Positions 25,324 through 55,434 of a stretch of 64,000 nucleotides of DNA are shown piece after piece. The position numbers were made by a program, and so were the translations under genes. Source of the stretch: Utricularia gibba (taxonomy: Eukaryota > Streptophyta > Magnoliopsida > Lamiales > Lentibulariaceae); NCBI GenBank assembly GCA_002189035.1, contig NEEC01000016.1, positions 1,178,001-1,242,000 on the forward strand. Direction: 5' to 3'. The stretch's first letter is position 1, and the number at the start of each line of letters is the position of its first letter. A model generated the notes under the pieces. That model had not been told where the DNA came from and made no database searches. It saw nothing but the letters and a program-made list of their open reading frames with translations.

Positions 25324-27914
25324 ATGTTCCCCGAAACTTTGGTCAAGCAAAATAGTATCCTTTGTTCGCCCCCGCACACTCAGATAATTACTGCTAGTCG
25401 GAGACTCAGTCAGTGCAGGAAAGCTTATGGGTATTGCTCACAGTTGAAAACAAAGCTGTCTAATAAGGGATTATGGTCTGTGTATGGGCGTGTCAGAACT
25501 TCTTCTAGAGGTTCTTGGGGATCCCCTGTTGTGCCTCAATCAACGGAGACAGATCATGCGGAAACGGAAAAACATTGCAATGATGGTTCGAATTACACCA
25601 GGTATTCTGATGTTCTTCCCCCTTAGTTCAAAATGATACCTTTTTTCTATTCCGTCTTGATAATTGCTGATTTTGTTGTATACCCTTGATCTTGTTTTTG
25701 AGCTTCTTGTCCTTTATTTATTTATTTGTTCCTCGGGAAGGTAGTTCGATGGCATAAACTTCAGATGCTGCACTTAATCTGTGTGACCTCTTCCGTCTGT
25801 CATAAATTTCTGTGGACTCTTTCTAATATGTTGATTGCGTTTTCTTGGTATTTCTATTGCTTTTGATTCAGCTTTCAGATGGAACATAGTCGTGTCAATG
25901 GAGGTGGGAAAAATGTCTCTTTGAATCAAGGACTTTCAGAGGCATGCCGATATGTTCACATTGATGCAGAGTTTATGAATCGAAGGGCAAGAAATGATCT
26001 TCTACTTCTTTCAAGGTAGTCACACTGTTCACGAACCAAAAGTGGCGATCACATCCTTCTTTTGTTTTGCTTATTTCACATTTTTAAGTTAATATATACA
26101 GAGAAAGGTGAATGTTTTGAATTTCTGATTTTGAAATTAGAGAACTAGAGAAGTTGAATGCCCGAGCACAGCAAGATGTTGCACTTCTCGGCTCTGGATT
26201 CTTGAAGATGGATGGTGAGAATCTTCTTCTAACCCTTAGAGCGTGCTGAAGTTCGAAGTGGTTGAAGCAATCTGCAGTAAATTAACGCTTTTTTGTACGT
26301 AGAGGAAGTGAATTTTGTTGTATGTGTAGTTTAACCTATCACATTTTCTTCTGCATAGCACGAGCTCGAGAAGATACTGAAAGAATTGATCTTGATGTTA
26401 AAAAAAGAGCTGAAAGGCTTCAACATATTGCCGCTGTAAGAATCTACCTTGCATTGATTTTGTGAGCCTCACTGATGCTATGCCATGGTTGATTTATCTT
26501 TTTTAGCTGTTCTGTTCTTCAGGTACTTAAAAGCAAAGCTCAAACAAGTATAAAATCTGCTGCTGACAAACACTGGAGTGATGGTGCATTGGAGGTTGTT
26601 TATTGGGATTTGCTTACCGCAGACGTCGTATGCTGTTCTTATTATTTGACTCTGAATTGTTTGAGATTGCTGATGTTCAGGCTGATTTGAAGAGAGCAGA
26701 TAATGCAGCTAGGAGCCGTGCCATTGCAGATTCCCTGATGGCTTTAGAGGCACGTTCAGCCATGAATTATTTGCAACTTTTACATGCTTTTCTCCATATG
26801 ACTCCGGAATTGAATTATTTTTGATCTTTTGAATTGCAGTTTGTCAAAAATATTCACGAGATGATGCTGTGCAAAACGTATGAACTTATGTTTTAGTAGG
26901 AGACAACTTGTTGGTCATTCAAGATTTTATCCTGATCGTGGCCTTAGTTCTTCCAGGAAAAAAAGCTCTCCACGTGACTCAAGACATATAACAATTGAAA
27001 AGAATGGCAAAACAGTGGAAATTATTCCAAGAGATGCATCTTCTGATCGAATCAATGCTATTCAGGTTATTATCCCTCACCTGTTTATGGCTAATTTCTT
27101 ATTCTCTCCGCCAAAAGATTGCACTATTTCATCAGTCCCCTGCTTTGCCGCCACAAAAAAAATGCAAGTACAATCATAAACTAAAGATCAATTAATATGT
27201 ATATCCCATGACTCCTTTTCTGCATACTTGTTTAACATGTAGGAAGCATATTGGAGCATGGCTTCTGCCCTTTCGGAGGCTGATGGAATTGATTATACTG
27301 ATCCTGAGGAGGTTTGTACTTCTCCCAAAAAAACAAGGGTCTGGGATAATTACTTCACAGTGCAACTCCATGTTTTGAATAGTCTTTTGTTTAGAGCAGC
27401 TGGAGTTGCTAGTGGCAGCTCTTATTGACCTCGATGCAATGGATGGTAAAAGTAGTGTATCCTTGTTAGCTGAGTGTTCATCTTCTCCGGATGTCAGCAC
27501 CAGGTAGCCATGCCGTTACACCATGCTAATGTTTCTAGATAAACAAGAAACACCAGAGTACACTTCTCTTTTTCCTTGTGAACTCTGTACAGGAGAGCGT
27601 TGGCTAATGCTTTATCCGCAGCTCCATCAATGTGGACCTTAGGAAATGCTGGTATGGGCGCCCTCCAGGTTGTTTAATCTTCAACTCTCTGTTTTTTTTT
27701 CATGTCAAACAAGAGAAGCAGCTACCAGAACATAGAAACTCATCATGCCCCTTTCCAGAGACTGGTAGAAGACAGCAATCCTGCCATTGCTGCAGCAGCC
27801 ACCAAAACAATCAAGGAGCTGAAGAAACAGTGGGAGATCGAGGAAGGAGATAGCTGGAGGTTCATGATGGATGCAACTCCTGGAATCAGTAACGGGATCG
27901 AGGACGACTGTTAA
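25324..27914 (+). CDS. SPA15/AAF-type senescence-associated protein, plastid
   Basis: Relatives are SPA15 of sweet potato and Arabidopsis AAF, linked to leaf senescence and redox balance in plastids; the biochemical role is unknown. Exons: 25324-25601, 25872-26015, 26141-26214, 26359-26435, 26523-26594, 26681-26749, 26840-27065, 27243-27311, 27400-27503, 27593-27668, 27759-27914. The Ser/Arg-rich N-terminus fits a plastid transit peptide; the start at 25324 is the first ATG in frame but not proven. The middle is helical (YVHIDAEFMNRRARNDLLLL, ARAREDTERIDLDVKKRAE). The end has EAYWSMASALSEADGIDYTD, APSMWTLGNAGMGALQ and KKQWEIEEGDSWRFMMD, the hallmark of the family. Two oddities: the intron at 26750-26839 begins with GC, and one extra T in the run 26891-26894 shifts the frame inside exon 7. 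Confidence 0.85.
26891..26894 (+). other. Single-base frame break in a T run of the SPA15-type gene
   Basis: The frame encoding FVKNIHEMM meets TAG just after four T residues, while the family sequence resumes in the next frame (RRQLVGHSRF). An intron cannot explain it: the only GT...AG here would be 22 bases long. One T too many accounts for it. Confidence 0.65.
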
Positions 27915-28556
27915 CTATATGAATCCAAACTTCTTTGTATGTGTAGATTTAGATAGCAGACAGATGAAGAATCTCCGAGCACTGTTCTCTTTCCCCCTCA
28001 ACATGACTTCCAGATTTTAGTTGAACTTCCCTGATTCTCCCTCTCGCTGCATTTCTATTAGAGCTAAAGCATATGAATCGTGGAAGTAAGAGCAACTTGG
28101 TAGCTTTCACGGCCTGCAACTTCATGCAATTGAATGGGATCAGGAAACCAGATTCATAAAAGCGTTTAATGCATATTCACACTTTCATGGTGACACTGCA
28201 CCCAACTTGTCATTCCAGCTGCAGCGATAGATGCCTCTTAAGTACGCTCAAAGATGGTGAAATAGTCTACATGATCAGTTCATCCAAATAATCTGTCATT
28301 TTCTTGGACCATGCATGAAATTCAGTGGGATCTTTGCCATTGATGATCCTGAGTTGTTAGTTGTCATCCTAGTTTTCACTATACATACTTTTTTATAATA
28401 TTATTCATTTTGAATATTCAATTTTTATGTTCTAGTTTTTTGAAAAAATAATCAAAAAACATGAAGTAAGGCATAAAAAAACTAAAAACAGAGCACGTAT
28501 AAGGGTGTTCATGCTGGGTTCATCGTGAAGAATTCCACATATTCCTCATGTTTTTT

Positions 28557-29106
28557 TTACTTGGTGAACTTCATAAGATTTGAATTATGGATTGCAATTT
28601 TTGTATGAAGTGAGCAGAAAACCAACATTGCAAGATCTGCATCGCGTGATTCATTTTGTTTTTCTTCATTGGAATCCGATTGGGTGGGGTGTGATGGAAT
28701 CGCAGGTACTGAAATGTCGTCTCCGGGTGCTGGGTTGCCAATCACGATGGATTCTACTGCCTCCGAAAACTTCGCCACCCTGTCCGACAAAATAACTTCA
28801 CCAAGTTTTCTAGACTTTTTCCTGTAAAAGATTCGAACTTTGCCTCTTGCCGGATTCTTCTCGAGGGACGTGGCTGAGAAGGAAAGATTACGCGACGGGC
28901 GGCGACACTTCTGTTAAATTGTTGCTGCTGCTACTGGAAGATTGATTTTGATTCGGGGGCATGATTCTTCTCTGAAAAAAAAACTCTCTTATCTGCGGCA
29001 CACATCTCTGAAGAATCTCAGGAAACTGGACCGAAATCGAATTCATCGGAGTCTCCATGTTTGAAACAGAAATCCAAATCTGGGATTTCATCTTTCTCCA
29101 TTCCAA
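28557..29106 (-). other. Possible small gene or gene remnant, unassigned
   Basis: Two minus-strand frames adjoin: 29106-28888 (with MPPNQNQSSSSSSNNLTEV) and the one ending at 28557 (with DRVAKFSEAVESIV and a Ser/Pro/acid-rich tail). A T-rich stretch ending in CAG precedes the RRIMPPNQ block and could be a splice acceptor. Joining the frames would need an unseen intron or a one-base change near 28897-28915. I recognise no family; it may not be a gene. Confidence 0.25.
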
Positions 29107-29394
29107 AGCCCATTCATTATCTGGAGACGAGTGAGTGACAGAGCCTCTTCTTCTTCTCGGCTCGGGGGAGTTTTAAGTTGCAGATTGGTGCTCCAATATG
29201 GGACAAGACAGAGAGACAACTGGAAGCACCCGAACAGAAACATTGCAGGTGGCTGTAACTGCAAGGCCATATCACCATTCGGATAGGATACAAATATACA
29301 ACATACCTTAGAACAAAACCAAATGTACCCACCAACATTTCGAAAACACTAAAACTTAAAACTTTCATCTTACAAAAGAAATGAAAAGCAGTTC

Positions 29395-29880
29395 TTGGTC
29401 TGGACCAACTCCCCCTTTATGATGATAGGTATGCTAGAAGGGGGCTCCCCTTAGAGCTACTTTTTCCTCACGGATTAACAACACCCTCACCCCACGTGAT
29501 GAATGGGTAGGGGTTGCCAAGCCTCGACGAGCCCACAGTGGCCCTGGCAAATCTAGACGTAGTCAAAGCGGAACCTGCGACTCACTATGTAAACGCCCTC
29601 TGGGGGGCAACCCACGGCAACCAGGGGAGATGTCCCGACGGTTCATCCCTTCGTTACTCGAGCCCCGGCACGTCCAATGAGGAGTTCCAATGGCATCGGA
29701 TCTGTTCATTTTGCTTGACCGTCGAGAGCCCCATGTCCCGCCTCCAGAGCTCTCTTTTGAACATCAACTCGGTGCCCCAACAACAAAGGCGCGCCCTTTC
29801 AAAACCCTAGGGGTTACTGTACGGACACGAGAGCATTCAGGGATGAGAAGGAGAGCGCCACAGCATTAGTGCAAGGAGGA
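29395..29880. other. GC-richer island of unknown origin
   Basis: This stretch is clearly richer in G and C than its flanks and holds a 98-codon open frame on the plus strand (29514-29810) without any recognised motif. It does not look like the neighbouring genes or spacers. It may be part of a mobile element, a transferred organelle fragment or a decayed gene; I cannot decide. Confidence 0.35.
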
Positions 29881-30535: not shown

Positions 30536-32831
30536 CTAACTCCAAGAGATTGCCACTGGGCTCCCTACGACGTGTCTCCCATCGGACCATTCGATTCTCC
30601 CGAACTGATTCGTGTTCGAGGGCATAGGCGCTGCGGTGAACGTCACCGTATACGATTGCTTCTCATCGCTTTCACTGAACGTTAGCGTTGGTGGATCCAC
30701 GGCTATTTTGACCGCCGCGGGAGAAGTTGCTGAGACCTTGTATGTTCCCGGCGGACCCACGTTTGTCAACGTTCGCGTGTATTTCACCACCATGGGTGCG
30801 GATCTGCCCTCGCTGACGCCGGGGTGACTCACCGGAGATTCCAGAGCCACCGCGAATGAAGGGTAGTTCAGGTCGTTGACGCTGTAGGTTTTGCTCTTGT
30901 CGCAGCTGAAGTTCCGTCGCGCCACACTGGTGATCTGCCCAGTGGTGTAGTTCAATGCGCACAAGAAATTCAGGTAATCTTCCGGCGCGATGTCGTAGAC
31001 GAGCCCCGGGTTGAGTGCGGACACGGGATCCACATGCCCGGATCCGTAATCGAACGGCGTCGCGGGCTTCCTTGTGGAGATATCTTGGATTGGCTCGCCG
31101 TTTTTGTACACCGTGTAAGCGGTGGTCATCAACGCCGAGCGGATCGCGGCGGGGCTCCAGCTAGGGTGCGTCGATTTGACCAGAGCCGCCAGGCCGCTGA
31201 CGTGAGGGCACGACATCGATGTGCCGGAAATTATGTTGAAGTCCACGCGCCGCCGTCGTCCGATAATCCGGTGGGCCCCACTTTTCGGGACCACGCGGCT
31301 AGGATGTTGACGCCTGGCGATATGAGGTCGGGTTTCAGTACGGCGGGAGTGATGGAGTTGGGACCCTGGAGCTGAAGGCGGCGACCACCGGCGATGGCTG
31401 GATGCCTACTTTCGTGCCTTCGAAGAGGATCGTGGCCGTTGGATTCGGATCTGTGAAGAGGTAGCTCTTTATCGCTTGGCCGACTGTTTCGCCGACTGCC
31501 GTGGCAGGGAGCAAGTGAGCGTCGGCGACGAGCTCATCTCCATTTGCGGCGGTATTGGATAAAATCATACCGGCGCCGCCAGCTGCTTTCACGACGGCGC
31601 CCTTTTGAACTCTGGGACTTACGCCACGATCACATAACACGATCTTATCCTTCACCTTTTCAGGAATCAGAGAACCCGTCATACAAAGATTGCCGCTGCT
31701 GACGTTGCTGGCGTTTCCGGCGTAGACAAATTGAAGCATTTTTCCCGGCAACTCACCTTTATACAGTGAGACACCGGAGAAATTCTTCCCGTTACCCAGA
31801 CTAACATACGCCGGGAAATCGCGGTCCAGAGTTCCGGCACCTACTGTGGTTATCCAAGGGCCACGTTGGATAAACTATACGAACTTGGGCCTGCATTTCC
31901 GGCAGAGCAAGAGACGAGTATGCCCTTTTCCATGGCGGCGAATGCTCCGATGGCAACGTTGTCTCTGTAAAAATCCGACGAACCACCGCCGAGAGACATC
32001 GAGAGAACGTTAACGTTGTCCTCGATGGCTTTATCGATAGCAGCCAGTATGTCGGAGCTGAAACATCCACCGACCCAACAAACCTTATACGTAGCAACTC
32101 TCGCCCGCGGCGCCATCCCGCGGCCGTCCCGGCCGCGTACCCAAACAAGCTTGCACTCGAAACGACAGATCCCGCCGCGGTGGAGGATGTGTGGGTTCCA
32201 TGGCCGTCCCCGTCTCTCGGCGATTTCTCCTCCTTGGTCTCATCGATTGGACCCATAGTCGCCTCGTAGCCTTTAGAAAAGAATCTGGCCCCGATCAGCT
32301 TCCGGTTACAGTTCTCTTTCGTAAAATTGGTCCCAATTTCACATTCCCCTTTCCAAGAGGCAGGTACTGGCCCGAACCCAGTATCATCGTAGCTCGGGCT
32401 CTCTGGCCACACACCAGTATCCAAAACGCCGACGATGACATCATTCCCAGATCCAGATTCCGGCAGCATCGCCGGATTTTGTCGAGACCCAGAAACAGAG
32501 GCGTCCTCGTAGTGTGAAGCTCATACCTAACCTCAGGCAGAACCGACAAAATCCCCGGCATACCCTCCATCGCCCGAGCTTCCTCGGGCAAGAGGACTGC
32601 CGCGAACCCATGAACCGCGTTGTTATATGCGTACAGCATTTCCGCCGAGTCCGACACCGATCTCAGAGAAGAACCATACCACCCCAGATGGTCATCAGCA
32701 AAAACCTCCGGCATCTCAGACCGCGCCATGTGAACTATGTAAGTCTTCCTCTCCGCAACCGATACACGTAAAAGGCACAGTAACAGAAACCCCATAACCC
32801 ATTCCACCGAAAATCCGATCCTTGTATCCAT
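30536..32831 (-). CDS. Subtilisin-like serine protease, SBT1 (SBT1.7/ARA12-like), frame-disrupted
   Basis: Secreted endopeptidase of the cell wall; SBT1.7 relatives act for example in seed-coat mucilage release. Intronless, as usual for the group. Signal peptide ([15 protein letters not shown]), inhibitor-I9 prodomain ([16 protein letters not shown]), then the catalytic domain with Asp in [10 protein letters not shown], His in [10 protein letters not shown], Asn in [10 protein letters not shown] and Ser in [13 protein letters not shown]; a PA domain is inserted ([20 protein letters not shown]) and a fibronectin-III-like end finishes with [10 protein letters not shown]. The frame is broken five times, near 32477-32480, 32121-32125, 31858-31860, 31364-31366 and 31251-31262. 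Each is repaired by assuming one lost base, mostly in a homopolymer. No substitution-type stop codons were seen and all key residues remain. It could be a recent pseudogene or a functional gene with assembly errors. Confidence 0.8.
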
Positions 32832-35800
32832 TTTTTCTCAGGGGAAGATGAGAAATGGTGAAACTGTGCAAAATAGTGTGGCGGGTCTATATAGGGGTAG
32901 AGCGCTGGTGGAAGATGGGCGAGGTGGGGACGGTGGCTCTTGTTTTCTCTGTTCATCGCCATCAAACTGAAAAAGAAAAAAAAAACTTAAAAGAAAAGCC
33001 AGGGAACAAGTGGGAGGCATGGTGCGCCATGTGCACCTCTCTCTCCTGCTATTTTTCCTCGGCTTTCCCTTTCCCTGTCCCTTTTGGTGGAATGCGTCGA
33101 TTTCTGTCAGTGACTCATGCACCTCCATAGCCAAAAGCTTGATTTTTGCTTTGATCACGTGTGTGTGGTGCAGGCTTTGGATAAAAGGAATCCTCCCCAC
33201 CACCAAAACCATCATCAAACTTCGCTATTTGGGCCCAATATTTTGATAGTTGATATTAGATGAATACAAATATTTATATTAAATTCTTATTTTTATCAAA
33301 TAAAATAAAAGTTACAAAAGTTGGGAGGGGATTTAATATTTTAAATTTTAATATATATAAATACCACTTAGGAGTTCATTTAATATTTTTATATGAGACT
33401 TATTTTTTATTTACATTAAAATGTAATGAATATATAATTATTTTTTGAATAAATGTAACTTTTTTTAATTTAATAATTCATCAGTTTATCATTTAAATGT
33501 ATATCATCCCATACACACATTACGTTTAAAATATTTCCAAATACATTTAAATGGTGCAACTAGATAATGCCCATTAGATGAATACTTTATCTTAAAACTA
33601 ATTTTAAATCTAGGATTCGTATTAATGGTTCCCACATGTCATCTTTGGAGTGATCTAAAATTTTATACCCAAATTAGGTAGTAGATGAAGAAGTAGGGGA
33701 CATTATTATAACCAATGAAAAAGGAGTAATCCTAGATTCTATTAAAATCATTTATTTTTATTTAAAAATAACTATATTTTTCATAATATAATAGCATGCA
33801 TTTGAGGGATTAAATACTTAGATTTCAATTTTCATAATTAAATTCGAGTTGTTTTTATTTATCATATATGTTAGTAGATACATAATTAATATAAAAAAAA
33901 TTATATTATAAATTTCAATTATATAAATTTATATTTCGATAAATTTCATCCGAGCGCTCGGTTTTTGGATCGTCCGATGCGCAACGGGTCCGGTTGACTC
34001 GGTTTCGGCGCGCGGAGCGAAACGACAACCCGAAGTTCATTAGGTTTCGGAAATCTTCTCCTCATTCACTTTCATTTCCCGCGTCAAACTATCAAAATCA
34101 GAATCAGTTCTTCGGTGAAGGTCAGCGAGGGCCATTCCTGTTATCCTTTTTTGATGCTTACAGGCTGATTTGATTCAACGAGAGGCTGTGGCGGGCGATT
34201 AGGAATCGCGGACGGATCTTCGGGAATCAGGTCGGAGATCGTCTTCATCAATACTGGTGAGTCTTCACTCCCTCGTTCTTTCTGCGTGTACTGCTATCGT
34301 GAACGGAAATTGGTTTGCGTGTAGAAAGGGCCGGAAATTGGTTGGTTCGGTCAGGCAGACCGGCCAGCTAGGTTTGGGCCGATTTGAAAACTTAAAACGG
34401 GTGGTTGAAAGTTGCGAATTTTATTTTATTTTTTCTTGAAAAAATAAATAAAAATATCCAGATTTGTATGGGAGGTGGCCATCGTTGTCCTAGAAATAAA
34501 AAAAAATTATATGATTTATATTTTATGTTGAATAATGGAATTATGGAGGCGTACGGAGATTTGAAACTAGGTGGTCTGGTGGGTCAATGAGGTGTGATAT
34601 TTTCGTTGAATTCTTGTGGACTACAACAACTTCAATTATTTGGGTGTTTTTTAAATAAAAACCTGAGTCATGATGCACATGACGTCGGGTGTCGTGGTGT
34701 TTTCAATGCAGTTCATGATTACAACCTAAACATGATTAGGGTCAGGCTTAGACTTACTACAACAATAATAATTAGATACTTTATGTTAAATAATGTATCA
34801 TATTTGGTTTGGTGAAAATTGATATTTAACACTATGGATTAGTTATTTATTTTTTCATTAATGATGATACATGAATCCATGTTTTTTAATTAATAGGATG
34901 ATAATAATATTATCTTTACAACTGTCAATTTAATTCTCTCTTTTTATCAACAAATTCATTATTTATATTTTTAAAAAAATTACAATTTTGAAGATATAAC
35001 ATTTTTAAAAATTTTGAACTATAAAATTATTATGTAAGATAACATAACATTGTATTATAAATTTAATAGAATAAAATATATGTTGTAAAGTTTTAATTTA
35101 ATATTATGATATAAATATATTTTTAAAATAAATAATATAATTTTTATTTATTTTTTAAAATAAAGATTTAAGAAATTAAATAATTTATGAAGTTAATACT
35201 AAAATTTAAATTTTTTATTTTATTATATAATGATTAAAAATTAAATAAAATTATTTCAAGAAATTAATAAAATAACACGCTCCAAATCTAAGAAAGATTG
35301 GGTTAAAGCGATTTGTTATGCAAGCCCAAACTTTACCGTACGGTGCAATCATGCAAAATCATTGGTAGAGCTGGGCCTGAGGCCCGCGTTCAGGTTCCAT
35401 GACGATAATCTGGGCCTCTATAAATGCATATATGAAGGTGATTCTTCAAGTCAGTTGCTTTCTTGGTAGACCCATCTTTGTTTCCAGAAGCGGACATGGC
35501 CTGGGGACCCTTCGTCATTTCTAATCCAATAAAATTTCTCTGCCCAACAACCAGATTCTTCATCTAATGACAATGGGGCCTTGCTTATGGAGGACCCATC
35601 TGTAACGTGCTTGTTCTCCCAGTTGCCACAACCAACTTTCCCAATCCTGCCTCGAGAAAAAAAATAGGACCATGAATCATGCTGTCTTGTCTTCAATGTC
35701 ACAGTAGCTGTAGGCTGTATGGAGATGATGCCATGTCAGGAATGCCGATTCTTGCTTATGTGCAATTTACATGCTGATATCCATACGAATTGCAGGCAAC

Positions 35801-36263: not shown

Positions 36264-38310
36264 ATGTCCACCAGGAAGGAGCTTATGTCCATCTCAATGA
36301 AGAGAACTAGAGAATGGTTTGTTGTCTCTTATTTATTGTGTCACTTTGCACTCAACGCATGGAGTTAAGGATTTGAGAACTGAAGCATTGATTCTGAGTT
36401 TGACAGGATATTATCTGCGGAAACACCTTCTGATCTGATGATACATGTGGGGGAAACTTCCTTTTCTTTGCACAAGGTACAGAGAGCATTCTTTGCAGAA
36501 CTTTAACTGCTACTTAGGCTTCTTGAATCCTCTACTTCCATATTTAATCTTATAAGGTGTACACTGAAACCTCAAAAGGTTCCTCTGCTGTCGAAATGCG
36601 GATACATAAAGAAGCTCATATCAGAAGCGGATGAAGCTGGTGATCGGTTGACAATAGAACTCTTTGAGCTTCCTGGTGGGGCAGAGGGATTTGAGTACGC
36701 AGCAAAGTTCTGCTATGGCGTTGGGTTTGAGATGAACACGGGAAACATTGGTGTACTTCGATGCGTGGCTGAGTTTCTAGAAATGACAGATGAATATGCT
36801 GCTGGAAACTTGGTTTCCAGGACTGAAGACTTCATAACTGGAAGGGCACTTCAAAGCCTTTCTGGGGCAATTTACACGTTGCATTCTTGTGTAGGCATTC
36901 TTGATGCAGCAGAGAAAATTAAGCTGGTAAGCCGTTGCATCGACGCCATCGCTTTCTTCACCTGCAGAGATATCACATTAGCAGCCTATGAGAAGGTGAA
37001 TGGCAATCAAGAAGTTTACTGGTGGGCTAAATCTTTGAGTATTCTTAGATTTGATGTCTTCCAACGAGTGCTCGTTGCAATGGTAGCCAGAGGATTCAGT
37101 CAGCTGGCTCTCGGCCCTGTTCTAGTACAGTTCTCCATGAAGTTCATCAAAGGATTGGTAAGGTTTCTGAATATAAAAAGGAAGAAAGGCGCCACCATTC
37201 ATCAAAACCTCCCTGTTTTGTTTTTCAGGAGATTTATGCGAAGTTGAGGAAGAAGACGGAGCCTAGAGAACAACAAGAGAAAAGGGTCATTTTGGAAGCG
37301 ATAGTTGGTTTTCTTCCAAGACAGAAAGACACATTCTCAGTTAGTTTTCTCTCTATGCTTCTCAAAGCAGCAATCTACCTAGACACAACTGTTTCTTCTC
37401 GCCTCTGCCTGGAGAAAAGAATAGCCTTACAACTCGAGGATGCTGTCCTGGGTGATCTTATGATTCCTTCCTATTCTTCAGAAGGGTGTGCGGTGTTCGA
37501 TATCGATACTGTGAAGAGAATCATCTCTAGCACCTTGGAGTTTGAAAATGAAAACCATAGAGGAGTCAGTAAACTGATGGAGGAGTACCTCGCTGAGATC
37601 TCCTCTGACCCCAACTTATCTATTTCACAGTTCATCAGTTTTGCGGAACTGATCTCTCGAGATTCAACAGCCAGCGATGACGGAATCTATGAGGCAATCG
37701 ACATTTACTTGAAGGTTGTTAGCTCTCATTCAAAGTTCAATCCTTCGTTTTCATAACTTGTGTGTTTTGGTTGCAAAATATCCATCCACAGGCTCACCCA
37801 GCTCTCAGTGACATGGAAAGAAAAAAGCTCTGCAGTGTGATGGACATCCAAAAGCTCTCACTCGAAGCCTGCTCGCGTGCAAGATGCAACAAAGGCCTCC
37901 CGCTTCAAATCACCCTTCAACTTCTCAGCAGCGAGCAGCAACATCTCAGCCACCGCTGCTCCGATTACAACAGCGAGCAGGCCAGAATCAACCCGTGTGC
38001 AAATGACAGAAGCTTGTGCGCCAAAAGGGAAAGCCATGAACAGAAAATGGAGCTGATTAGCATAAAAACAAAGGCTAGTGATACGGGTAAACAGTCTGTA
38101 TCCCGCATCTACTCCAACATTACTAGCGCTGGCACCGCGGGGAAGGCTCCAACACAAAAGAAGACCTTGATCAGCGCCGTGCCGATAAAACTCTTCCCGT
38201 TACTCCGGGCAGACGCCGCTTGCAAGCCGCCACTCAAGGGTAAAACCACACTCAAAGAAACAGATGCAAAACAACTCAAAGAAAAGTGTCCAACTTTTGG
38301 ATCTTTCTGA
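36264..38310 (+). CDS. NPH3/BTB domain protein (NRL family, At5g67385-like)
   Basis: NRL proteins are plasma-membrane-associated scaffolds or CUL3 adaptors in phototropism, organ growth and auxin transport. Exons: 36264-36316, 36407-36476, 36579-37157, 37229-37714, 37792-38310; phases agree. The BTB domain begins after MSTRKELMSISMKRTREW (SDLMIHVGETSFSLHK, then LPGGAEGFEYAAKFCYGVG). The NPH3 domain includes WWAKSLSILRFDVFQRVLVAM, EKRVILEAIVGFLPRQKD, SVSFLSMLLKAAIYLDT and HPALSDMERKKLCSVMD. The C-terminal tail is long, Lys/Ser-rich and low in structure. An in-frame ATG at 36216 would add 16 residues. The gene converges with the GRAS gene: the stops are 217 bases apart. Confidence 0.9.
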
Positions 38311-38527
38311 ATCAAGTTTTTTGATACAGTAAAGTAACTGTAAAATTGCAACCCCCTTGAAGCCTTCTTCCATTTTGTTGGGAACCACTCCTTCCCCACC
38401 TGTGATTTGTTGCTTTCTGTTGCTCAATCCAATAAAAACAAAAACGCAAAAAACCAGGGACTTGAAAATAAATAAAATAAGTATTTGAATAACGTGGCGT
38501 TGACTGTAAGTCAAAACGTACAATAAC

Positions 38528-40138
38528 CTAAGCAGCAGGTACCCACGCCGTAGCGAAGATGACGTTATGACCCTTCCACGTAAGCACTAAATGCTGTTCG
38601 TCTTCTTCCTTCTTGAGTCCCCACACCGGAGCATGCTCATCAAGCATCCGCTTCACCTCCCCTATCGCTTCTTCACTGAACGCAACTCCTCTGAATCCGA
38701 CGTTTCTCATTCTCTGCACCCATTTGCTCTTCGTCTCCGCCCGTTCGACTCGCTGCCGGCCTTCCTGCGATACCACATTCTCGATTTTCCAGTATATATC
38801 AGCCTCGTACCTGAGTTCAGTTCAGTGAATGAAGGAAGGTTCAGATTGGATTCCTGCAAGAGCATTACATCACCATTGTACTTACCATTCTCGGGATTTG
38901 TTCCCATTTGGAAGGAAGGTTTCCATTGTATCATAAGGAATCCAGAGATAGTTGTAAGCTGCTATCAACCTGTTGACAAGATTGATCGATGTGAAGTCTG
39001 CGTCTTCGTCGACCACCATGACGACCGTCGGGTTCAAGGTCCGTACGGCCTTGAGAAACATGTCGCGGAGGGACATGGAGTCTATGGTTTCTTCCGGGAT
39101 GTAGTGCAGCATCATGTGGCAGTTGATCACCAGGGCTTCTCCTGTTTCTGTTGGAAACAAGCGAAAGAGTCGATCAGTGGTTTTGGAACTAATCACGCAG
39201 ATTGATTATTTGTATCATATTCGAATTTCGTCGGCAAAACCGCAAATCGACATCCCAAATCAATGCCGTGAAGCTATCTGGGATCCGAAGTGCAGCATGG
39301 AACCTTCCATGGATGTTAACGGAAGAACCCTAATCAAGAAGTAGATTATTTTTTATGACTCTGGGCACTAAAGCTATCTCCTTTGAGGCAGAGTTACGAA
39401 AACCAGAAGATGAATGCAAACATTGTCATCACCTTGTGGTAGCTGAAGCTGTTCTATCAATGCCGAGAAGCCATCGGAGCAGGTGCAAGGAACTGTGCGG
39501 AACTCCAGTACGAGGTTCTTGGACATGGCGAAGTTCACGAGCTTGGATCCGAGCTCGTCGTATGTGAAATCAGGAAACGGGGGGAACTCCTCTATCGTGC
39601 CCGCTACGGTGAGCTTTATCACCGGCAGGATTTTCAATCTGGATGCGATGGCATCGATCAGCGTCGGAATCTGCATGCAGTGTGTCAGGCTTATGTCTAC
39701 GATGTGAACCACCGGATATCCCTCGACGGCTTCGATCAATGCTGAGTTCGCAGCAGTAAACCCGAACCTGTATCAGAAAAATTGGTTCTAATCTTCACAG
39801 AGCTTAAAACTAGAGCTGGAATAATCAATTGTGGAAATGAAAAACCTGTGCCATGGAGTTAAGTCGACGAAGCTGGCGAGCTCGATGATGGAGAACCTAT
39901 GGTTATGAATGATGGGAAGGTTGTTATCAGGATGGAGATGGGCCACGGCGGTAAGAAGCTTGGTGTTGCCGGTCTTGGTGGCGCGTGTGATTAAAGCGCG
40001 GAGGAACCCCCAAGTCAAGCGCTGGTTGGAGTCTCCGTCGGCGGCGGCGATGTTGTTGAGAACCCATAGAATCTGCTGCGAAAGAGTGGCGTCGTTACTC
40101 TCGATGGCGGCAGCGCAGTGCACCAGAAGCTGCTCCAT
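38528..40138 (-). CDS. SCL32: GRAS-family transcription regulator, SCARECROW-LIKE 32 type
   Basis: Nuclear transcription regulator. Exons from the start: 40138-39846, 39767-39433, 39147-38886, 38820-38528, phases agreeing. GRAS landmarks in order: first leucine-rich region (MEQLLVHCAAAIESNDATL), VHIID motif as VHIVDISLTHCMQIP, a second leucine-rich region, EALVINCHMMLHYIPEE, PFYRE/RVER region (VVSQEGRQRVERAETKSKW) and SAW end (LTWKGHNVIFATAWVP). Wording matches SCL32. The start is unsure: the frame stays open upstream to a Met at 40318, but a likely acceptor at about 40160 suggests a 5' UTR intron, leaving 40138 as start. Three coding introns are unusual, since most GRAS genes have none. A long upstream ORF lies at 40532-40149. 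Confidence 0.88.
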
Positions 40139-40148
40139 GCAATTAGCA

Positions 40149-40532
40149 TCACTGTTGAAGAAGAGAGAAATGGCATGATTCACAACAACAACTGTAACAA
40201 AAGAACACAAGAATGCGATGACAATGACCAGACTGCATAGTGGTACCTGAGGCATTGAATATTTCCTGCAAACTGAAACAAAAAGCCTTTCTTTTTTCCC
40301 CATTGATTGTTCCCTCAAAAGTGACTAGAGAGTCCTCAGAATCTGTTCTGGTCAGCAGCAGAATCTGGAAATCATTAGCTCCAGGGCTACTCTCCTCCTC
40401 GCTCACCCTTCTCAGCACCTCTTTCTTTTCTCCATCTTGATGTTCTGAAGGGGAAAAAGAGGAGATGGAGATGTATCGTATGTCATCCCTATCAAGGGGC
40501 CATAACACGCGTCCTCCCTGAGCTATTCTCAT
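40149..40532 (-). other. Long upstream ORF in the leader of the GRAS gene
   Basis: A 127-codon frame starts MRIAQGGRVLWPLD at 40532 and ends at 40149, 10 bases before the likely GRAS start. It has no GRAS or other known motif. If the leader is unspliced it would be translated first; if the CAG|gtacc donor near 40250 is used, only part remains. Confidence 0.35.
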
Positions 40533-40846
40533 TTATGAATTCAGAGGTCTGTTCACTATCCACCCGATAACGGTATCTACTCGTCGGACGAGAGAGACGA
40601 CCATCCTTTCAACCTTCTTCTTCTCCCTCTTCTCCTCCTACTCCTCCTCCTGTAACCGCATTTCAGGTCTTGTAAAACCAGAACGTAACGTGAGGTGCCA
40701 TTGAAGGAAATGAGAGGATCGTTGAAGGTCTGGTTGATTCGGTATCAAGTCACGCTTCACCAAGCACGAAGAGACAAAGCGTGAGTGAGAACGTGGCTGA
40801 GTGACTCATCTTGTCTCCTTCTCTCTCCCTCTTTCTTCTTCTTTTT

Positions 40847-40890
<44 letters not shown>

Positions 40891-41701
40891 TACCTTGCCC
40901 ATTCATCATCATATGGTTGATTTGTTATGGGTAAAAAAGCTTGCACTATTAAATTTATTAGAATTGTTTGATAGTATAGTATAAAAGATTATATTCAATT
41001 TTATAAATAAATCATTGTCTAACTAATTAATATATGTATATCATTTTTGCATTATCATATCATTAACATATTCATTACAAATGGAGTGGAGTGGGAGTTA
41101 AATTATATTTATTCCATTTACATTATTATATTTCCATTTAGAATATAAAAGATTATATACAATTGAGTATTTATATATATAATTATATTATATTTAAATA
41201 TAATAATACCTTATTATCAAAAGACTTATTAGTATAATTATGACTCAACATGTTCAATATTTAGTTTAATTAATCATATATTGAATTATTTATATTTATA
41301 TAAACACGTGTTATGAAGTTATAATTAAAATTATATTTAATATATGCATTTATAATATATGAAAAAAAAACAAATTAAACTATTCTAAGGATGAGAGTTT
41401 TAACAAATTTCAGGAAAAGTAACTAAATTTCAGGAATATTTCATTTCATAAATAAATAATAAATTCAAAATTTGGGAAAATTTTGATGAAATTTTAAATC
41501 ATCGAACTCCAAGGTCTTGAAAGTGGAAATCGTATGCCTTGTTTCCGGTCCGTATTTACTTTTCAACGTGACAGAGAGCCGGCCCAAAAAAGGCCCAATA
41601 TGCTCCACGATGAGTTTTTTTTTCTCGTAGAACGACGTCGTGTTGATGGAAAGTCGGGGTTTAGATTAGATCGAAAACTGGTGAGGAAAAATGCAAATTT
41701 G
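40533..41701. other. Divergent promoter region with T tract and AT-rich spacer
   Basis: Lies between the GRAS gene (-) and CK2 alpha (+). 40533-40840 is CT-rich leader/promoter. A T run of about 36 bases sits at 40849-40884. 40920-41500 is very AT-rich. GGCCCA motifs occur at 41581-41586 and 41592-41597, about 110 bases before the CK2 start. Confidence 0.5.
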
Positions 41702-44079
<2,378 letters not shown>

Positions 44080-47270: not shown

Positions 47271-49990
47271 ATGGGAGCACTTCCCCGTTCCTGGATTCTG
47301 CTTCTCTTGCTTCTGTTGATCGCCATTGTTGGCGGCGAGGAGAATGGCCGGAGGATTCTCCACCAGCCCTTGTTCCCGTTTGTTTCATCAGAGCCACCGC
47401 CTCCGCCGCCGCTGCCGCCTGCCCTGGATTCGCCTCAGCAGGACCAGCCCTTCTTCCATGAGCTCCCATTTGGGTCTTCCGAGGGGATACCCAGCAAATG
47501 CCGCCGCCGCCGCCGTTTGTTGGAGCGATGGAAACACCGGTGACTCCTCCGCCGTCCAGTTTGATTAAGAAAGTGGCGATCGCGGCGGCATTGACTGTTG
47601 TGACTTTGGCTCTGCTGTTGGCGGTGGGGTTGTATCTATGCAAGCGGCGTGGGAATCAGAAGGATGAGTCGCGGAAGCTCGTCGGTGAGAATTCGATGGC
47701 TATCAACGTGGAATCGAGAATGCCGCCGCCTGCGCCGTCGCTTCTTTACATCGGGACTGTTGAGCCGTCCGTCGGTAGTTTGATTGATGAAGCCAGTGGC
47801 GCTGCGAATGGATCGCCGTATCGGAAGTTGAATTCGGGCAAAGTATTATTCGATCGTTACAGGCCGAGCCCGGAGCTTCATCCCCTACCACCATTGCCGA
47901 AACCACCGCCCCCTCCGCCGTCTCTGAGGCTAAATTCTCCCCACCCATGTCTTCTTCCGATGACGACACCAATTTCTACACTCCTCAACGGTCCTCTTTC
48001 AGCAATGGGTCTCCAGTTTTGCGTCAAAATCGCATTCATCAATCCAAAAGAACTTCCCCTAAATCTCGCCTCTCATCATCTTCTCCTGATACAAAGCCAG
48101 TGATTATACCCTCAATCAAGCAACCTCAACTCCCTTCACCTCCTCCGCCGCCAGTTGCGGCAGTTGCTTCTTCATTAGCGCCGCCGCTACCTAGTAAAAC
48201 CCTTCCGTATACCCCTAAAAGAGTAGGCCCAAAATTCCCCCACCTCCTCCTCCACCGGATATCTCGCGTCTCCGATCAATAACCGCCTCCGATCAGGAGA
48301 AACCCGGCGTCCCAATTCCACCGCCACCACCGCCGAACTCAGAAAATGGTGGGTCTGTAGATGCAACTGCAAAATCACTGCTTTCCGAAACGGTAACAAT
48401 ATCTGAGCTACAATGTAATACTCCCAACGAGACGGTAACTTCCCTTTCATGCCGCGATGATGAAATAAAAGAAGATGGAGATGGGTCGAAGCCGAAACTC
48501 AAGCCTTTGCACTGGGATAAAGTGCGAGCCACCTCTGAACGAGCCACAGTTTGGGACCAGATGAAGTCAAGCTCTTTTCAGTGAGTGAAGCTTCTTTCAA
48601 GGAAGTCAAAATTGTCATAATCGTCAGTAATGAGCCACATTTTTTGTTTCACAGATTGAACGAGGACGCCATGGAATCACTTTTTGGGTGCAGTTCATCA
48701 GGTAAGGATAGAGGACGAAAGCCTGTCCTGCCGATTCCACAGCGGGGGAACCGAGTTTTGGATCCTAAGAAATCTCAGAACATTGCTATTCTGTTAAGAG
48801 CGCTGAATGTCACAGTAGAAGAAGTCACCGATGCACTTCAAGATGGTACATTTTTTGTTATATGAAGACACTGCAGATTGTAGCGATTGCATGCCATTCA
48901 ATGGTGGGTGCATTTTGCAGGGAAATTAGAGGGATTGGGAGTGGAACTGCTGGAGACGTTAGTGAAGATGGCACCAACGAAGGAGGAAGAGATCAAACTC
49001 AAGAGCTACGATGATGAAATTTCGAAGCTGGGATCGGCCGAGAGGTTCCTCAAGGAGATTTTAGATATCCCATTCGCTTTCAAGAGAGTCGAGGCAATGC
49101 TGTATCGAGCTAACTTCGAGAACGAGACCGTTTACTTGTCGAAATCGTTCCAAACATTAGAGGTACTTACTGTACATGTCTGAGTTTGAGGCAATGCTTC
49201 ATGAAAAGCTTGCAAGTTCAGTGTTTGTTGCATTATCTGTGTTCAGGAAGCGAGTGAAGAGCTGAGGAACAGCCCCCTCTTCCTGAAACTTCTGGAAGCA
49301 GTTTTAAGAACAGGGAACAGGATGAACGATGGGACAAACAGGGGCCATGCCAGAGCTTTCAAATTGGATACATTGTTGAAGTTGGTGGACATCAAGGGAG
49401 CAGATGGTAAGACAACTTTGCTTCATTTTGTCGTGCAAGAAGTCATCCGGTCCGAAGGAGCCGAATCCGGAACAACTAGCGAGCCTCAGCAGCCGGATTT
49501 CAAGATGAAAGAGGATGAGTTCAGGAAAAAAGGGCTGCGCATTGTTTCAGGTCTCAGCAAGGAGCTGGGAAATGTCAAGAAAGCTGCTGGTATGGATTCC
49601 GATGTTCTTAACAGCTACCTTAGCAAGCTGGAAATGGGGCTTGAGAAGGTGAAATCCGTCATCCAATGCGAGAAAACATCGCTGCCCCGTGGTGAATTTT
49701 TCGACTCCATGAAAGTTTTCGTCAAGGAAGCTGTGGAGGAAATCAGCAGAATCAAGTCTCAGGAGATGAAGGCCCTGTCCATGGTGAAAGAGGTGACAGA
49801 GTATTTCCATGGCGACGCAGCAAAAGAAGAGGCTCATCCTTTCAGAATTTTCATGATCGTACGAGATTTCCTCTCTGTATTAGACAACGTGTGTAAGGAG
49901 ATAGGCAAACAGCAGCTGGAAAAAACCTCTTTTGGTGCAGGAAGGTCATTCAGAATGGCACCAACAGCAGCAACACGATACATATCATAA
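47271..49990 (+). CDS. Class I formin (FH1-FH2), membrane-anchored actin nucleator
   Basis: Nucleates and elongates actin filaments at the plasma membrane; class I formins have an extracellular Pro-rich part that can contact the cell wall. Exons: 47271-48580, 48655-48845, 48921-49162, 49247-49990. Order: signal peptide ([16 protein letters not shown]), extracellular Pro-rich region, transmembrane helix ([22 protein letters not shown]) with basic stop-transfer KRR, a serine-rich cytoplasmic linker with FH1-like proline runs, then FH2 from [17 protein letters not shown] onward, with [20 protein letters not shown] and [19 protein letters not shown], the lasso and knob wording of FH2. Exon 1 has three one-base frame breaks, near 47496-47498, 47917-47921 and 48231-48236; exons 2-4 are intact. 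Confidence 0.87.
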
Positions 49991-52279
49991 ATCAGATGTA
50001 TTTTTCTGGGATTGAACACCAAAACCATGAACAGTTTTACAGTAGACGTTTAGTAAATGATCCGATCCGCATATTCTGTAAAAACAGAAGGGTAAGGTGA
50101 AATCATTTTGATTCTCTGTAACGTGATACAAGGATGAAGAAGATGATGAAGCACACCCACATACATGATGTGATGAATGCAATGAAGCATGAATGATGAT
50201 GAACTACAGGTGTCAACTACAAGTTGAGTTTACTTGATGGAACTCACATTATACCTCATCATGATACAAAAATTTCATGAAAAACCCACTACCCTCATAA
50301 TCTATAAAGCCGAAGGAAATTTAATATAATCATGTTTGATCGACTTGTTTATATTTTTAAATATACATATGTTGAAAGAGTGTCTACCCTTGTCTTTGGC
50401 TAAGGACAATGATGATGAGAGTCAAAATGACAATTGCTGAGGTTTTGGTGTGCACCCAAACAACAACTTGAGGACTTGTGTGTGTGTAATGGGGAATTCA
50501 GGGGTGAGCCCTTTGAGGCAAAGATGCAATACCATGACATGGTAGCACAATGGTCAAGCACTACTAATGATCCTTTTTTTTATTTTCTAAGTTGTAGTTT
50601 TGGGGTTGAGTTACAAGTTAGGAAAGGAGGAGGATAAGAAGGAAAATGGAGTGACCAGGCAAGATTAAGTGCATGGGAGAAGGATAGCTATGGAAACGCT
50701 CATGGGACGTGCACATGTGAACTTTTGTAGTATGGGACTTCTTCAAGCTTAGCCTGTCTCGTCTCCCTTGTCTATTGGGTTGCAATTGTTCAACAATAAC
50801 TCACCTATTCTACCTGATGCTCGACATTTTCATAGTCTTGTGGGATGCTTGCTATATTTTTCATACACCAGGTCAGATTTGGGCTTTGCAACACACACCA
50901 CTTAAGCCAATTTATGCAAAAACCTAGGGGATCACTTTGAAACACGGGAGTGCATGTGATTGGTTATTTGCTGAGATCTCAAACTCTCAGTATCAGGTAC
51001 AAACCGATCGTTGGTACAGAATCTAACGCTTATTATGATGCAGGTGTGACAACTTGTTCTATTACTCGTAGTTCACTCTGAGTATTGTATCTTTTTCGAT
51101 GGGCAACTGTTCTCTTGGAAATCCAAGAAACAGTCGACTATCTCAAAGTCCTCAACTTAGGCTAAGTATCATAGTATGGCAGCTGCCACATTGGAACTAT
51201 GATGGTTGCCATCTCTTTTGAAGGATTTATGTAGGTCCATCTCATTATTATGTGATAACAAATTAGGTATCCATATTACACAAAACCTAATGTTTTAGGA
51301 ACAAACTAAACGTATCAAGATTTATCGTCACATTGTACATGAAAGCTATGACAAGGGATTCTTGGTTCTAAAGTATGTTCTTTCAAAGAGTCAACTTATG
51401 GCTATGCTGACTAAGACTTTACGGGCTAACAGCTTTCAACATCTCTTGTTACTTCTACATCTTACACATCTTCAAGTCTTGATCACTCAAGCCGTGCCAT
51501 GAGACAATAATCTTTTCTATTGTGATTCACGTTTTTTGTGTACTTGAACTTCATGAGTGTGCTTGCCCGACCCATCGGATCCTGAATTTCAACAAGTGTG
51601 GTATGTTACGGTGTATGTTCTCATAGATAGCGTTCATAGATTGTAACCTTAACTTATATCTAAGCTTAGATTGTGACGTTAGTTTAAGAAACATATTGTA
51701 TAAGCATTCTTATTCTATGGAAAATTACATCGTTTTCCCACTTCTCATTCTTCGTTTGTACAGCATCGTACATACATTCTATTGATCAGGTGAAGAGGAC
51801 TGCTCTTGCACGAGAGATCTCTAGAAGATTATCTACAAATGAGAGTATGATCACCATCGGAGGATCTTGCGCTGCCGAAATGATCGTGTTGCAGCATGAA
51901 GTCATCGCATGATCAGCAATTACACTTTCCAGTGAATTCGACACCGAGGCGCTGGAGAAGATCCCCAGGTTGGGTGTTGCGCTTGCCTGGAATCCTTGAA
52001 AGCATCCGCATCTTCCCTTCCAGTACTCTGCGTTGTTTGAATCCTTTTTTTTTTTTCAACTGTCGTGTTTTTGAGGTCACACACGCCATCGTCACCAGGT
52101 GGTTGATGCTCAGGAACAGCCTGATCAATTTTGAAGATCACTTGGGTGAATTTCTGCAGTCTGTTCTGCATTTATGGAATAGTAGGCAGGTGATCATGGT
52201 GGTGCTTTATGTGGGAAAATTGGTATATTTGGCAATTGATGGGCAAAATGGAGGCCCAAAGGATCAACTGAATGCCCAC
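49991..52279. other. Intergenic with a decayed copia retrotransposon piece
   Basis: 49991-50430 is formin 3' UTR and flank. 50430-51070 holds short frames only. 51070-51560 is a copia remnant and 51560-51780 may be its decayed LTR. 51896-52279 is open in the frame of the following gene but looks non-coding. Confidence 0.5.
51070..51790 (+). mobile_element. Degenerate Ty1/copia retrotransposon 3' end (RNase H region and possible LTR)
   Basis: Translation on the plus strand gives the typical end of a copia polyprotein: a SWKSKKQST phrase, a phrase resembling the AEYRSMA box, LLCDN, an alternate frame phrase KIYRHIVHES and finally LTKTLRANSFQHLL, resembling the common LFTKAL box. Several stop codons and frame changes interrupt it, so it is dead. 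The AT-rich stretch 51600-51790 after it may be LTR remains. No complete element or second LTR is seen in the window. Confidence 0.7.
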
Positions 52280-52768
52280 ATGATTTCTCCCAAGCTCCCC
52301 AATCCTATTCTCGCGAAACTTCCGGACAACGCAGCCGTGACAAGAAGATCGACGGTAATCTTCACGGCTGCGTCTCCGATTCTTCTACCTGCCTGGTACA
52401 TGCCTCCCGCCGCCGGCGCCTTTAATTTACGTATGACGACGCCGGATAGGACGGTGGAAGAAGCGGAGGCCGAAATCGGGCCTCACGCGAGGAGCCTGGT
52501 GAAGGTGAAGGACCTGTTAACTTCGGAGTCGTGGAGAGACGCACAGAGGGTGCTCCGGAAGAGTGCGGCGGCGCTGAAACTCGACATTTACACCATTATC
52601 CAGTCAAAGCCGCCGAGCGAGAGACGGCGGCTGAGGGAGCTGTACTCGGAGCTATTCAACGCGGCGTCGGAGATGGATTATGCGGCCATGGACGAGGATA
52701 AGGTGAGGGTTTGGGAGAATTACACCGCCATGGTTTCATCTCTACAAGAGATTTTGTCGCGGCTGTAA
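52280..52768 (+). CDS. PsbQ-like thylakoid lumen protein (PQL3-like)
   Basis: PsbQ-like proteins are lumenal subunits; several belong to the chloroplast NDH complex that drives cyclic electron flow. One exon, 162 residues from MISPKLPNPILA. The N-terminus has TRRST followed by a hydrophobic stretch (VIFTAASPILLPAWYM) and a small-residue site, as in twin-arginine lumen targeting. The mature part is four-helix PsbQ-like: TVEEAEAEIGPHARSLVKVK, ESWRDAQRVLRKSAAALKLD, YTIIQSKPPSERRRLRELY and a last helix ending LQEILSRL. The frame is open upstream to 51896, but that part lacks conservation signs, so 52280 is preferred. Which PQL type it is cannot be settled here. Confidence 0.7.
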   Translation: MISPKLPNPILAKLPDNAAVTRRSTVIFTAASPILLPAWYMPPAAGAFNLRMTTPDRTVEEAEAEIGPHARSLVKVKDLLTSESWRDAQRVLRKSAAALKLDIYTIIQSKPPSERRRLRELYSELFNAASEMDYAAMDEDKVRVWENYTAMVSSLQEILSRL

Positions 52769-52862
52769 AAATAATTAATCCTGCTTGATTAACCAACCCT
52801 CCGTTTATTCACGTATTATTTCTGTTCTTCTGGTAATAAAAACTACAACATAATCTTAATGC

Positions 52863-52866
52863 AAAA
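52863..52866 (-). terminator. Pol III terminator of tRNA-Thr
   Basis: Four T residues on the minus strand, 7 bases after the tRNA 3' end, the usual pol III stop signal. Confidence 0.7.
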
Positions 52867-52873
52867 GAGATAT

Positions 52874-52947
52874 TGCTCTTGTTGAGAGTCGAACTCAAGA
52901 CCTCCCGCTTACTAAACGGGTGCTCTAACCAACTGAGCTACAAGAGC
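52874..52947 (-). tRNA. tRNA-Thr (anticodon AGU)
   Basis: On the minus strand a perfect 7-base acceptor stem (GCTCTTG/CAAGAGC), D arm GCTC...GAGC, anticodon loop TTAGTAA giving AGT, and T arm TTGAG-TTCGACT-CTCAA; 74 bases with the discriminator A. Internal A box (TAGCTCAGTTGG) and B box (GTTCGACTC) are intact and there is no intron. The AGU anticodon and the lack of a plastid-like context indicate a nuclear cytosolic tRNA. Confidence 0.95.
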
Positions 52948-53380
52948 TTATTGGTAATTGTTTTTATTGAAATAATTATTATACCCACTATGCATCACCT
53001 ACCTTCACAGCTACACCTCCGCCGTGCTACCGGCGGAAGTTTTCTTTACCGGTGACTTTCATGGTATCAAGTACGGTCAAATCAATCCATTTTTTCGCCT
53101 TTTTTTTCCAACGTCATACCATGTGGAAGGGATTTCTTCTGTTTACCTGGAGGTCCCTCGGGCTTCTAGGCTAAGATAGAGAGATTAAATAAATATTCAC
53201 ATTCAGACTTCAAGAAGTCGAATTCACATATTCTAGCTATTTATTTCAGAACAATACTGTACTTCAAAACGCATGACTGCATTGCTGAAGACCCCATCAT
53301 CACAAACACAAGCGCCAATTACGAGAACATGAAATGGCGATGACACCCGAAATTGTAGAAGAAGAAGAAGGAAGAGAAGG

Positions 53381-55434
53381 CTACTTCAGTTCAAGTATCC
53401 ACCCCATTTTATCTTCAGTCAGCCCCATCTGTAGGGAGGTGAGAGCAGAGTAGAGCTGCTGCGACACTCGGCCGACGCCGGCATCTCCATAGGTTACCCT
53501 ATACCACCAAGAGGCACATGCTATGAAATGAAATGAAATGAAATGGCCTTTCGAGTTTAAAGTACTTCACATGCTAACCTTTCACCGAGATAGGTTATGC
53601 TGCCGACAGGCGAAACCACAACTGCGGTTCCTGTGCAGAAGACTTCATCGGCATCAAGAAGCTCTTCTATCGGCACCTGGCGCTCATCCACCTTCAGTGT
53701 CACAGAGAAGAGCAGGAAGTGTGAGAGATGAGGGGTCCTGCTTAACTGTATAACAGAAGGCATACCTGGAATCCTAGACTCCTGGCAACGTCAATGATGC
53801 TCTTTCGAGTGATGCCGGGAAGAATGGTACCCTTGATCTCAGGAGTAGCAATCACGTTGCCCTGAGAAAAAAAGTATGTAACTTCAAGTAACTACTTGAT
53901 GAAGTGGGCCTGTTTTTGCTGTGTTAGGTTATATGATTATTTTCACCTTCACCACAAACACATTGCAGGACGAAACTTCTTCCAAGTACCTCTTGTGGAT
54001 GCTGTCCAAGTACAGAACATCAGCAAAGCCCTTTGCTTTTGCAGCACTCTGTGCCAGTAGAACCTGTAAAATAAGGCTATGACTATCGTTCTCAGAATAC
54101 AAATCTATAAAAGAAACAAGCGCCTGATAAATCAACATTCCAATCAATATGAACCAGAAGACAGAATAGTTTAGTAACATAAAAGCCGCTTACGGGGCAT
54201 AATTTCCAATGGTTTTCACTCCCCCAGTACCTCCGGGAGTAGCACGATGCATTTCAGTTTCAACTATCAGGTTTATTGGTGCCAAGCCTTCCTGGAAATT
54301 AAAGAAGATCCGCATGTTGATTAATAATGAGATTGAAGGGACAGCAAATCCATGAGCAACAAATCAAACAACATGATCTACTCAAGCTGATGATCATACC
54401 TTGAAATAGTTTCCAACTGGTGATACATAAACCAGAAAGGTGTACTCAGGAGCCGGCGCTAGACCAAGAACAGCTCCACTTCCCATAAGCAAAGGCCTGA
54501 TGTACAGGGAGCCTTTACCAGGTGGGGAATCTGAAGGCGTTACAAAAGAAAATGAGAACGATACCCCAAAATCACAGCATACTGTAAACCACATTTTCCT
54601 AATGAAACTAATACCCATCTCTCATTTGCCAAGACAGTGGCTTTGACTGCCTCAATGAAATCCTCCACTGTTGGCGCAGGCATACACATACGCACCGCAC
54701 CCGTCCTAAGTCGAAGAGCATTTTCCTCAGGGCGAAACAGTAAAATATTCCCATCATGCTTCCTATAAGCTTTCAATCCCTCAAATAATCCCTGAGAATG
54801 ATGCATTAAGCAGGGTTAAATGGAAGCTTAATTACTTGAGGGCACATCACTGAAGAGAAGCAAGATTACCAACCTGTCCATAATTCAGAATTCCAGCAGA
54901 TGGACTTAACTCAATGTTACCAAAAGGCTGCAGACCACCTTTACAAAATGCCTCGCCTTTGCCACACTTGGTCACATACATGTAATCAGTCGGCAAAAAT
55001 GAAAAACCAAGATTGTCCCAATTCACATCGGCAACCTGTTGTGCTACATTGCTGTACAAAAATGACACCCCAGTTCATGAAACAAACGAGCAGACGAGAA
55101 AGCTACGCAATCGCGAACCAGTACGCCAATCCTCCAACCCACCTGGAAACCGAACCCATTCGACAACAGATCACATTGCCCTTGCCGTGGTTAGTGCGAA
55201 ACGTTAAACTCTGTACAGAAAAGTAATAAAAAATCAGAATTCGAAAGCAAGCCCCCAAAAGAATGAACTGAAAACAACCGAAGAAACCGGGCACAGAAAA
55301 ATCACCTTTCCCGATACGGAATTCCGAGAGAAGAGCTTCCCGGAGATGGAAGACGGAGAACCAATAGCATAAGCATGAAGATAATGGAAAGTCAAGCTTT
55401 CACGCGCGCCGGAAATGAAACCAGTAGCCTCCAT
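53381..55434 (-). CDS. Branched-chain amino acid aminotransferase, organelle-targeted (BCAT, fold-type IV PLP)
   Basis: Transfers the amino group between Leu, Ile or Val and 2-oxoglutarate, the last step of their synthesis in plastids or first of breakdown in mitochondria. Ten exons from the start: 55434-55306, 55210-55143, 55051-54874, 54791-54615, 54530-54400, 54291-54194, 54063-53947, 53861-53766, 53691-53579, 53498-53381. A Ser-rich N-terminus of about 65 residues fits a transit peptide. Marks: [42 protein letters not shown], the PLP lysine in [26 protein letters not shown] and [15 protein letters not shown]. Two one-base breaks occur at exon edges: the C run 54524-54527 in exon 5 and the run 54194-54197 ending exon 6. 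Confidence 0.88.
53525..53544 (+). repeat. (GAAAT)n microsatellite inside a BCAT intron
   Basis: Four tandem GAAAT units lie in the last intron of the BCAT gene. Short and perfect; a usual slippage repeat. Confidence 0.7.

What the first reader, a model, noticed from the sequence alone, without database searches (positions are those of the whole stretch)
26891..54527. Twelve single-base frame breaks in five otherwise conserved genes
SPA15-type gene (1), subtilase (5), CK2 alpha (1), formin (3) and BCAT (2) each lose frame by one base, mostly within short homopolymers, eleven as apparent losses and one as a gain. Protein similarity continues directly in the next frame and no stop codons from substitutions were seen. 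Other long frames, such as the 906-codon PPR gene, are intact. A sequencing or assembly bias is the simplest explanation, and it would make automatic annotation split or truncate these genes.
Basis: partly seen in the sequence, partly recalled or inferred. Interest (0 to 1): 0.6.

Follow-up and report, generated by a model that had tools for sequence, protein, structure and literature searches.

The report
Missing bases from long-read assembly errors
Four ordinary plant genes look broken because this genome assembly drops single letters, mostly in short runs of C or G; the same fault appears across the assembly, even between contigs that carry the same DNA, so it is an artefact and not biology.

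Summary
The window is a plant contig (C402 of a 100.1 Mb, 516-contig assembly, very probably the PacBio-only Utricularia gibba genome). It has a homeologous block on C505. Against that block, 10 of the claimed 12 frame breaks are confirmed, all one-base losses: subtilase 5, formin 3, CK2 alpha 1, BCAT 1. A second BCAT break was not found (the frame changes seen are introns), no gain was confirmed, and the SPA15 site has no paralog here and stays open. All ten sites lie in G/C runs or pairs.

An assembly artefact is strongly supported. The same DNA assembled in three contigs differs almost only by single-base losses, worst at a contig end. Such losses break about a third of the GRAS genes surveyed, and the C505 copies have three of their own. 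The broken subtilase has no stop codon and no excess of changes over its intact twin. The subtilase is a local hot spot (2.2 losses per kb against roughly 0.4), probably thin read depth, which I could not measure. It is not a real biological feature.

The parts
30536..32837 (-). Single-exon subtilase gene (SBT1-like), one base short at five places: about 32479, 32120, 31857, 31363, 31250
   Evidence: Frameshift-aware alignment to the open C505 homeolog; no in-frame stops
41498..42043 (+). CK2 alpha first coding exon, one base short in the C-run at 41886-41889
   Evidence: DNA and protein alignment to the C505 homeolog
47300..48600 (+). Formin first exon, one base short at about 47479, 47940 and 48239
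   Evidence: Frameshift-aware alignment to the open C505 exon of 416 codons
53381..55074 (-). Branched-chain aminotransferase (BCAT) gene, one base short in the C-run at about 54528; other frame changes are introns
   Evidence: Pfam Aminotran_4, alignment to the C505 homeolog
26582..27914 (+). SPA15-type gene; two frames meet at about 26891 (ATGTTTTAG), unresolved
   Evidence: Sequence reading only; no paralog in the genome and no Pfam match
16625..19465 (-). PPR gene, intact control
   Evidence: Open frame of 946 codons
36507..37756 (+). NPH3-type gene, intact control; the one-base gap at 37209 lies in an intron
   Evidence: Alignment to C505 and shared GTAAGG...CAG intron
38543..40138 (-). 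GRAS gene, intact control: its four matched pieces are all in one frame, separated by an apparent intron
   Evidence: Pfam GRAS match positions, ORF list
20087..22360 (-). Rhamnogalacturonate lyase gene, intact control at its last exons; frame changes fall at introns
   Evidence: Pfam matches and sequence reading

Best explanation
The frame breaks are residual consensus errors of a long-read-only assembly. During consensus calling one base is dropped where short homopolymers, above all G/C runs, are under-called, and the chance rises where few reads support the consensus. The genes themselves are most likely intact and under ordinary selection. Shown here: the losses exist, are of size one, sit in G/C runs or pairs, recur across the assembly, and appear between contigs holding the same DNA. 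Inferred: that read depth is low at the subtilase, and that the organism is Utricularia gibba.
For: Three contigs with the same 3-4 kb differ by 16 gaps (11 of one base) in the C414-end copy against 2 in C422, and 6 single-base gaps in the C416-start copy, with almost no isolated substitutions; the GRAS gene there is open in one copy and broken in two. About 14 other GRAS genes carry about 21 net losses against at most about two gains, several in the C- or G-run of the same Gly-Gly-Pro-Pro codons where intact relatives have runs of only 3. The C505 homeolog has three losses of its own. In the subtilase, differences by codon position are 51/33/177, there are no stops, and unique amino-acid changes are about equal on the broken and intact copies. 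All ten breaks are of one base, against 49% of noncoding non-3n indels. Literature: the U. gibba assembly was made by HGAP from PacBio reads only (PMC5793159).
Against: No reads or second assembly were available, so no single site is proven. The subtilase has clearly more losses than the assembly average (5 in 2.25 kb, P about 0.002 at 0.4 per kb), and the low depth that would explain it was not measured.
Confidence: 0.94

Rival explanations
1. Real mutations: one copy of a duplicated block is decaying by single-base deletions while the C505 copy keeps the function.
For: The block is duplicated, so a copy could be lost freely. All ten breaks are losses, and gene loss after duplication (fractionation) is reported for U. 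gibba (PMC10663240).
Against: No stop codons, full purifying selection and no excess of changes on the broken subtilase. Five real breaks would be expected to bring some fifty neutral substitutions at the noncoding ratio. Losses occur in both blocks and between contigs with the same DNA. Intact genes are interspersed.
Confidence: 0.04
2. Programmed ribosomal frameshifting or another recoding mechanism keeps these genes working.
For: None found beyond losses repeated at the Gly-Gly-Pro-Pro codons in several GRAS genes, which C/G-runs explain better.
Against: No shared motif at the ten sites other than G/C runs. Close homologs encode the same residues in one frame. The same DNA differs between contigs.
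Confidence: 0.01
3. Some apparent breaks are misread introns rather than indels.
For: True for the claimed second BCAT break, for NPH3 37209 and for the lyase near 20530; possible for SPA15 at 26891.
Against: The ten confirmed sites lie inside exons that are continuous in the homeolog, with no room for an intron.
Confidence: 0.01

Closest known systems
Gene-fragmenting homopolymer indel errors in long-read-only assemblies (PMC12007338, PMC8812927; described there for small and bacterial genomes)
   Same: Single-base indels in homopolymers that split otherwise conserved genes; no accompanying substitutions; recur across the assembly
   Different: Here in a plant genome, with G/C runs of only 2 to 6 affected and a strong bias to losses
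Pseudogenes formed after whole-genome duplication (fractionation)
   Same: A duplicated block with one broken and one intact copy of a gene
   Different: No relaxed selection, no stop codons, both blocks affected, and the same signature between contigs with the same DNA

Membership tests
Long-read consensus indel error | Single-base events in homopolymers, biased in direction | tested here: met
   Ten of ten are one-base losses in G/C runs or pairs
Long-read consensus indel error | Same signature elsewhere in the assembly, independent of gene | tested here: met
   GRAS genes on many contigs and the C505 block
Long-read consensus indel error | Copies of the same DNA differ by such indels without substitutions | tested here: met
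   C414, C422 and C416 ends, at another locus than the window; no second copy of the window itself exists
Long-read consensus indel error | Reads support the base missing from the consensus | not testable with these tools
   No reads or second assembly held
Pseudogene (decaying homeolog) | Relaxed selection: excess of amino-acid changes or stop codons on the broken copy | tested here: not met
   Subtilase: no stops, unique amino-acid changes about equal on both copies
Pseudogene (decaying homeolog) | Indel sizes like those of neutral DNA | tested here: not met
   Ten of ten of one base against 46 of 93 noncoding non-3n indels, P about 0.001
Programmed ribosomal frameshifting | Shared slippery motif and conservation of the shift in close relatives | tested here: not met
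   Closest homologs are in one frame; the ten sites share only G/C runs

The most novel reading that the evidence does not exclude
The losses are real: one copy of a duplicated block in a compact bladderwort genome is being silenced by a recent burst of single-base deletions in G/C runs, before substitutions could follow.
Probability: 0.03. Interest if true: 0.55.

Novelty: not a real feature. Interest (0 to 1): 0.1.

Why it matters
Biologically it is ordinary. Practically it matters to users of this assembly: about a third of the GRAS genes looked at carry at least one apparent frame break, so gene models, pseudogene counts and gene-loss claims that rest on it need checking against short reads or RNA.

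Tried and rejected
Pfam on the SPA15 region gave nothing, and the genome holds no second copy, so that site could not be judged. Four further candidate breaks were considered and rejected: NPH3 37209 (intron), a second one in BCAT (introns), the lyase near 20530 (intron), and formin 49920 (a loss in the C505 copy). A search for a third near-identical copy of the window itself found none. The primary genome paper is not held, and searches for papers on such errors in this genome found none. G/C runs of 6 and 7 look scarce in the held sequence (13 and 1 where a steady ratio predicts about 21 and 5), but without a second assembly this may be natural. A frame change shared by several GRAS genes at one spot looked at first like a conserved shift; it is one-base losses, mostly in C/G-runs, and in one gene (L076) a real intron.

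Full report
What was checked. The window is G000:C402:1178001-1242000, part of a 100.1 Mb plant assembly in 516 contigs. I looked for a yardstick inside the same genome and found one: the subtilase has an 87% identical copy on C505 with an open frame of 794 codons, and BLAST shows a largely colinear homeologous block covering much of the window. BCAT continues the same block at C505:706911-708536.

The breaks. A frameshift-aware protein-to-DNA alignment places five one-base losses in the subtilase, all in the window copy. That makes ten. Comparing reading frames with the C505 copy, each of the ten falls in a G/C run or pair (my reading of the alignments). The formin difference at 49920 is best read as a base missing from C505, not gained here. 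SPA15 at 26891 does show two frames meeting at ATGTTTTAG, but no second copy exists to decide it. PPR, NPH3, GRAS and rhamnogalacturonate lyase in the window are intact where examined, once introns are allowed for.

Artefact or mutation: selection. In the subtilase the window and C505 copies differ 51/33/177 at codon positions 1/2/3, the broken copy has no stop codon, and against seven outgroup subtilases the unique amino-acid changes on the two copies are about equal. Noncoding DNA between the two blocks has about one non-3n indel per ten substitutions (93 to 903), so five real frame breaks would be expected to bring some fifty neutral substitutions. There is no such excess.

Spectrum. About half of noncoding non-3n indels are of one base (46 of 93), yet all ten breaks are (P about 0.001). 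The noncoding boundaries were judged by eye, so this number is approximate.

The same DNA assembled more than once. In a GRAS survey one locus turned up on three contigs: the last 4 kb of C414, the interior of C422 and the first 3 kb of C416. They are 99.0-99.6% identical, and the differences are almost all small losses in short runs: 16 gaps (11 of one base) in the C414 copy against 2 in C422 over 3.7 kb, and 6 single-base gaps in C416 over 3.2 kb. Isolated substitutions are almost absent; the one cluster is a five-base AACAC/GTGTT swap. The GRAS gene is open in C422 and broken in the other two. This is the signature seen in the window, arising between copies of what is evidently the same DNA, and it is worst at a contig end, where read depth normally falls (general knowledge).

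Assembly-wide. Of the GRAS genes found, 25 are open through the domain, while about 14 others carry one or more breaks: about 21 net losses against at most about two gains (a few rest on references of only 36-38% identity). Three of them (L083, L084, L086) lose a base in the C-run of the Gly-Gly-Pro-Pro codons and L082 loses one in the G-run just before it; intact relatives L026 and L065 have runs of only 3 at that place. The C505 block has three losses of its own in CK2 and formin.

How it most likely works. The assembly is very probably the U. gibba long-read genome, made by HGAP from PacBio reads alone, a pipeline that ends in Quiver polishing (PMC5793159). Contig C451 (6,822,880 bases) fits the reported 6.8 Mb Unitig_8 (PMC8333044). 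Consensus from such reads drops bases where runs are under-called and depth is thin. The species and the depth are inferred; no reads were available.

Local excess. A rough rate is 0.4 losses per kb in GRAS genes and none in about 21 kb of other single-exon subtilases; the window subtilase has 2.2 per kb, similar to the contig-end copies. The likeliest reason is a local dip in depth. The window-against-C505 contrast as a whole is only suggestive (10 to 3, P 0.09).

Verdict. It is an assembly artefact, not a biological feature.

Noticed in passing
L079 (C414 end), L080 (C422:15501-21500), L081 (C416:1-4000): One stretch of 3-4 kb is present on three contigs, so the assembly holds redundant contig ends. 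C422 has a five-base AACAC to GTGTT swap (an exact reverse complement) against the other two: a micro-inversion, an allele, or an error.
   Followed up: partly
L082-L086 (GRAS genes on C244, C375, C142, C2, C1): Five GRAS genes change frame at nearly the same protein position; in four the lost base lies in the C- or G-run of the Gly-Gly-Pro-Pro codons, a hot spot for the error.
   Followed up: yes
window 3625-55300 and C505:625001-710000: The window and a stretch of C505 form a homeologous block about 75-87% identical in aligned parts, useful as an internal yardstick for errors in this assembly.
   Followed up: yes
window and C505 block: G/C homopolymers of six or more are scarcer than the steady ratio of shorter runs predicts, as systematic shortening would give; natural scarcity is not excluded.
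   Followed up: no
C505:625001-695000, block positions 40399-41615: C505 carries a second, inverted set of CK2 alpha exons about 8 kb from the first, so CK2 alpha is duplicated there and single in the window.
   Followed up: no
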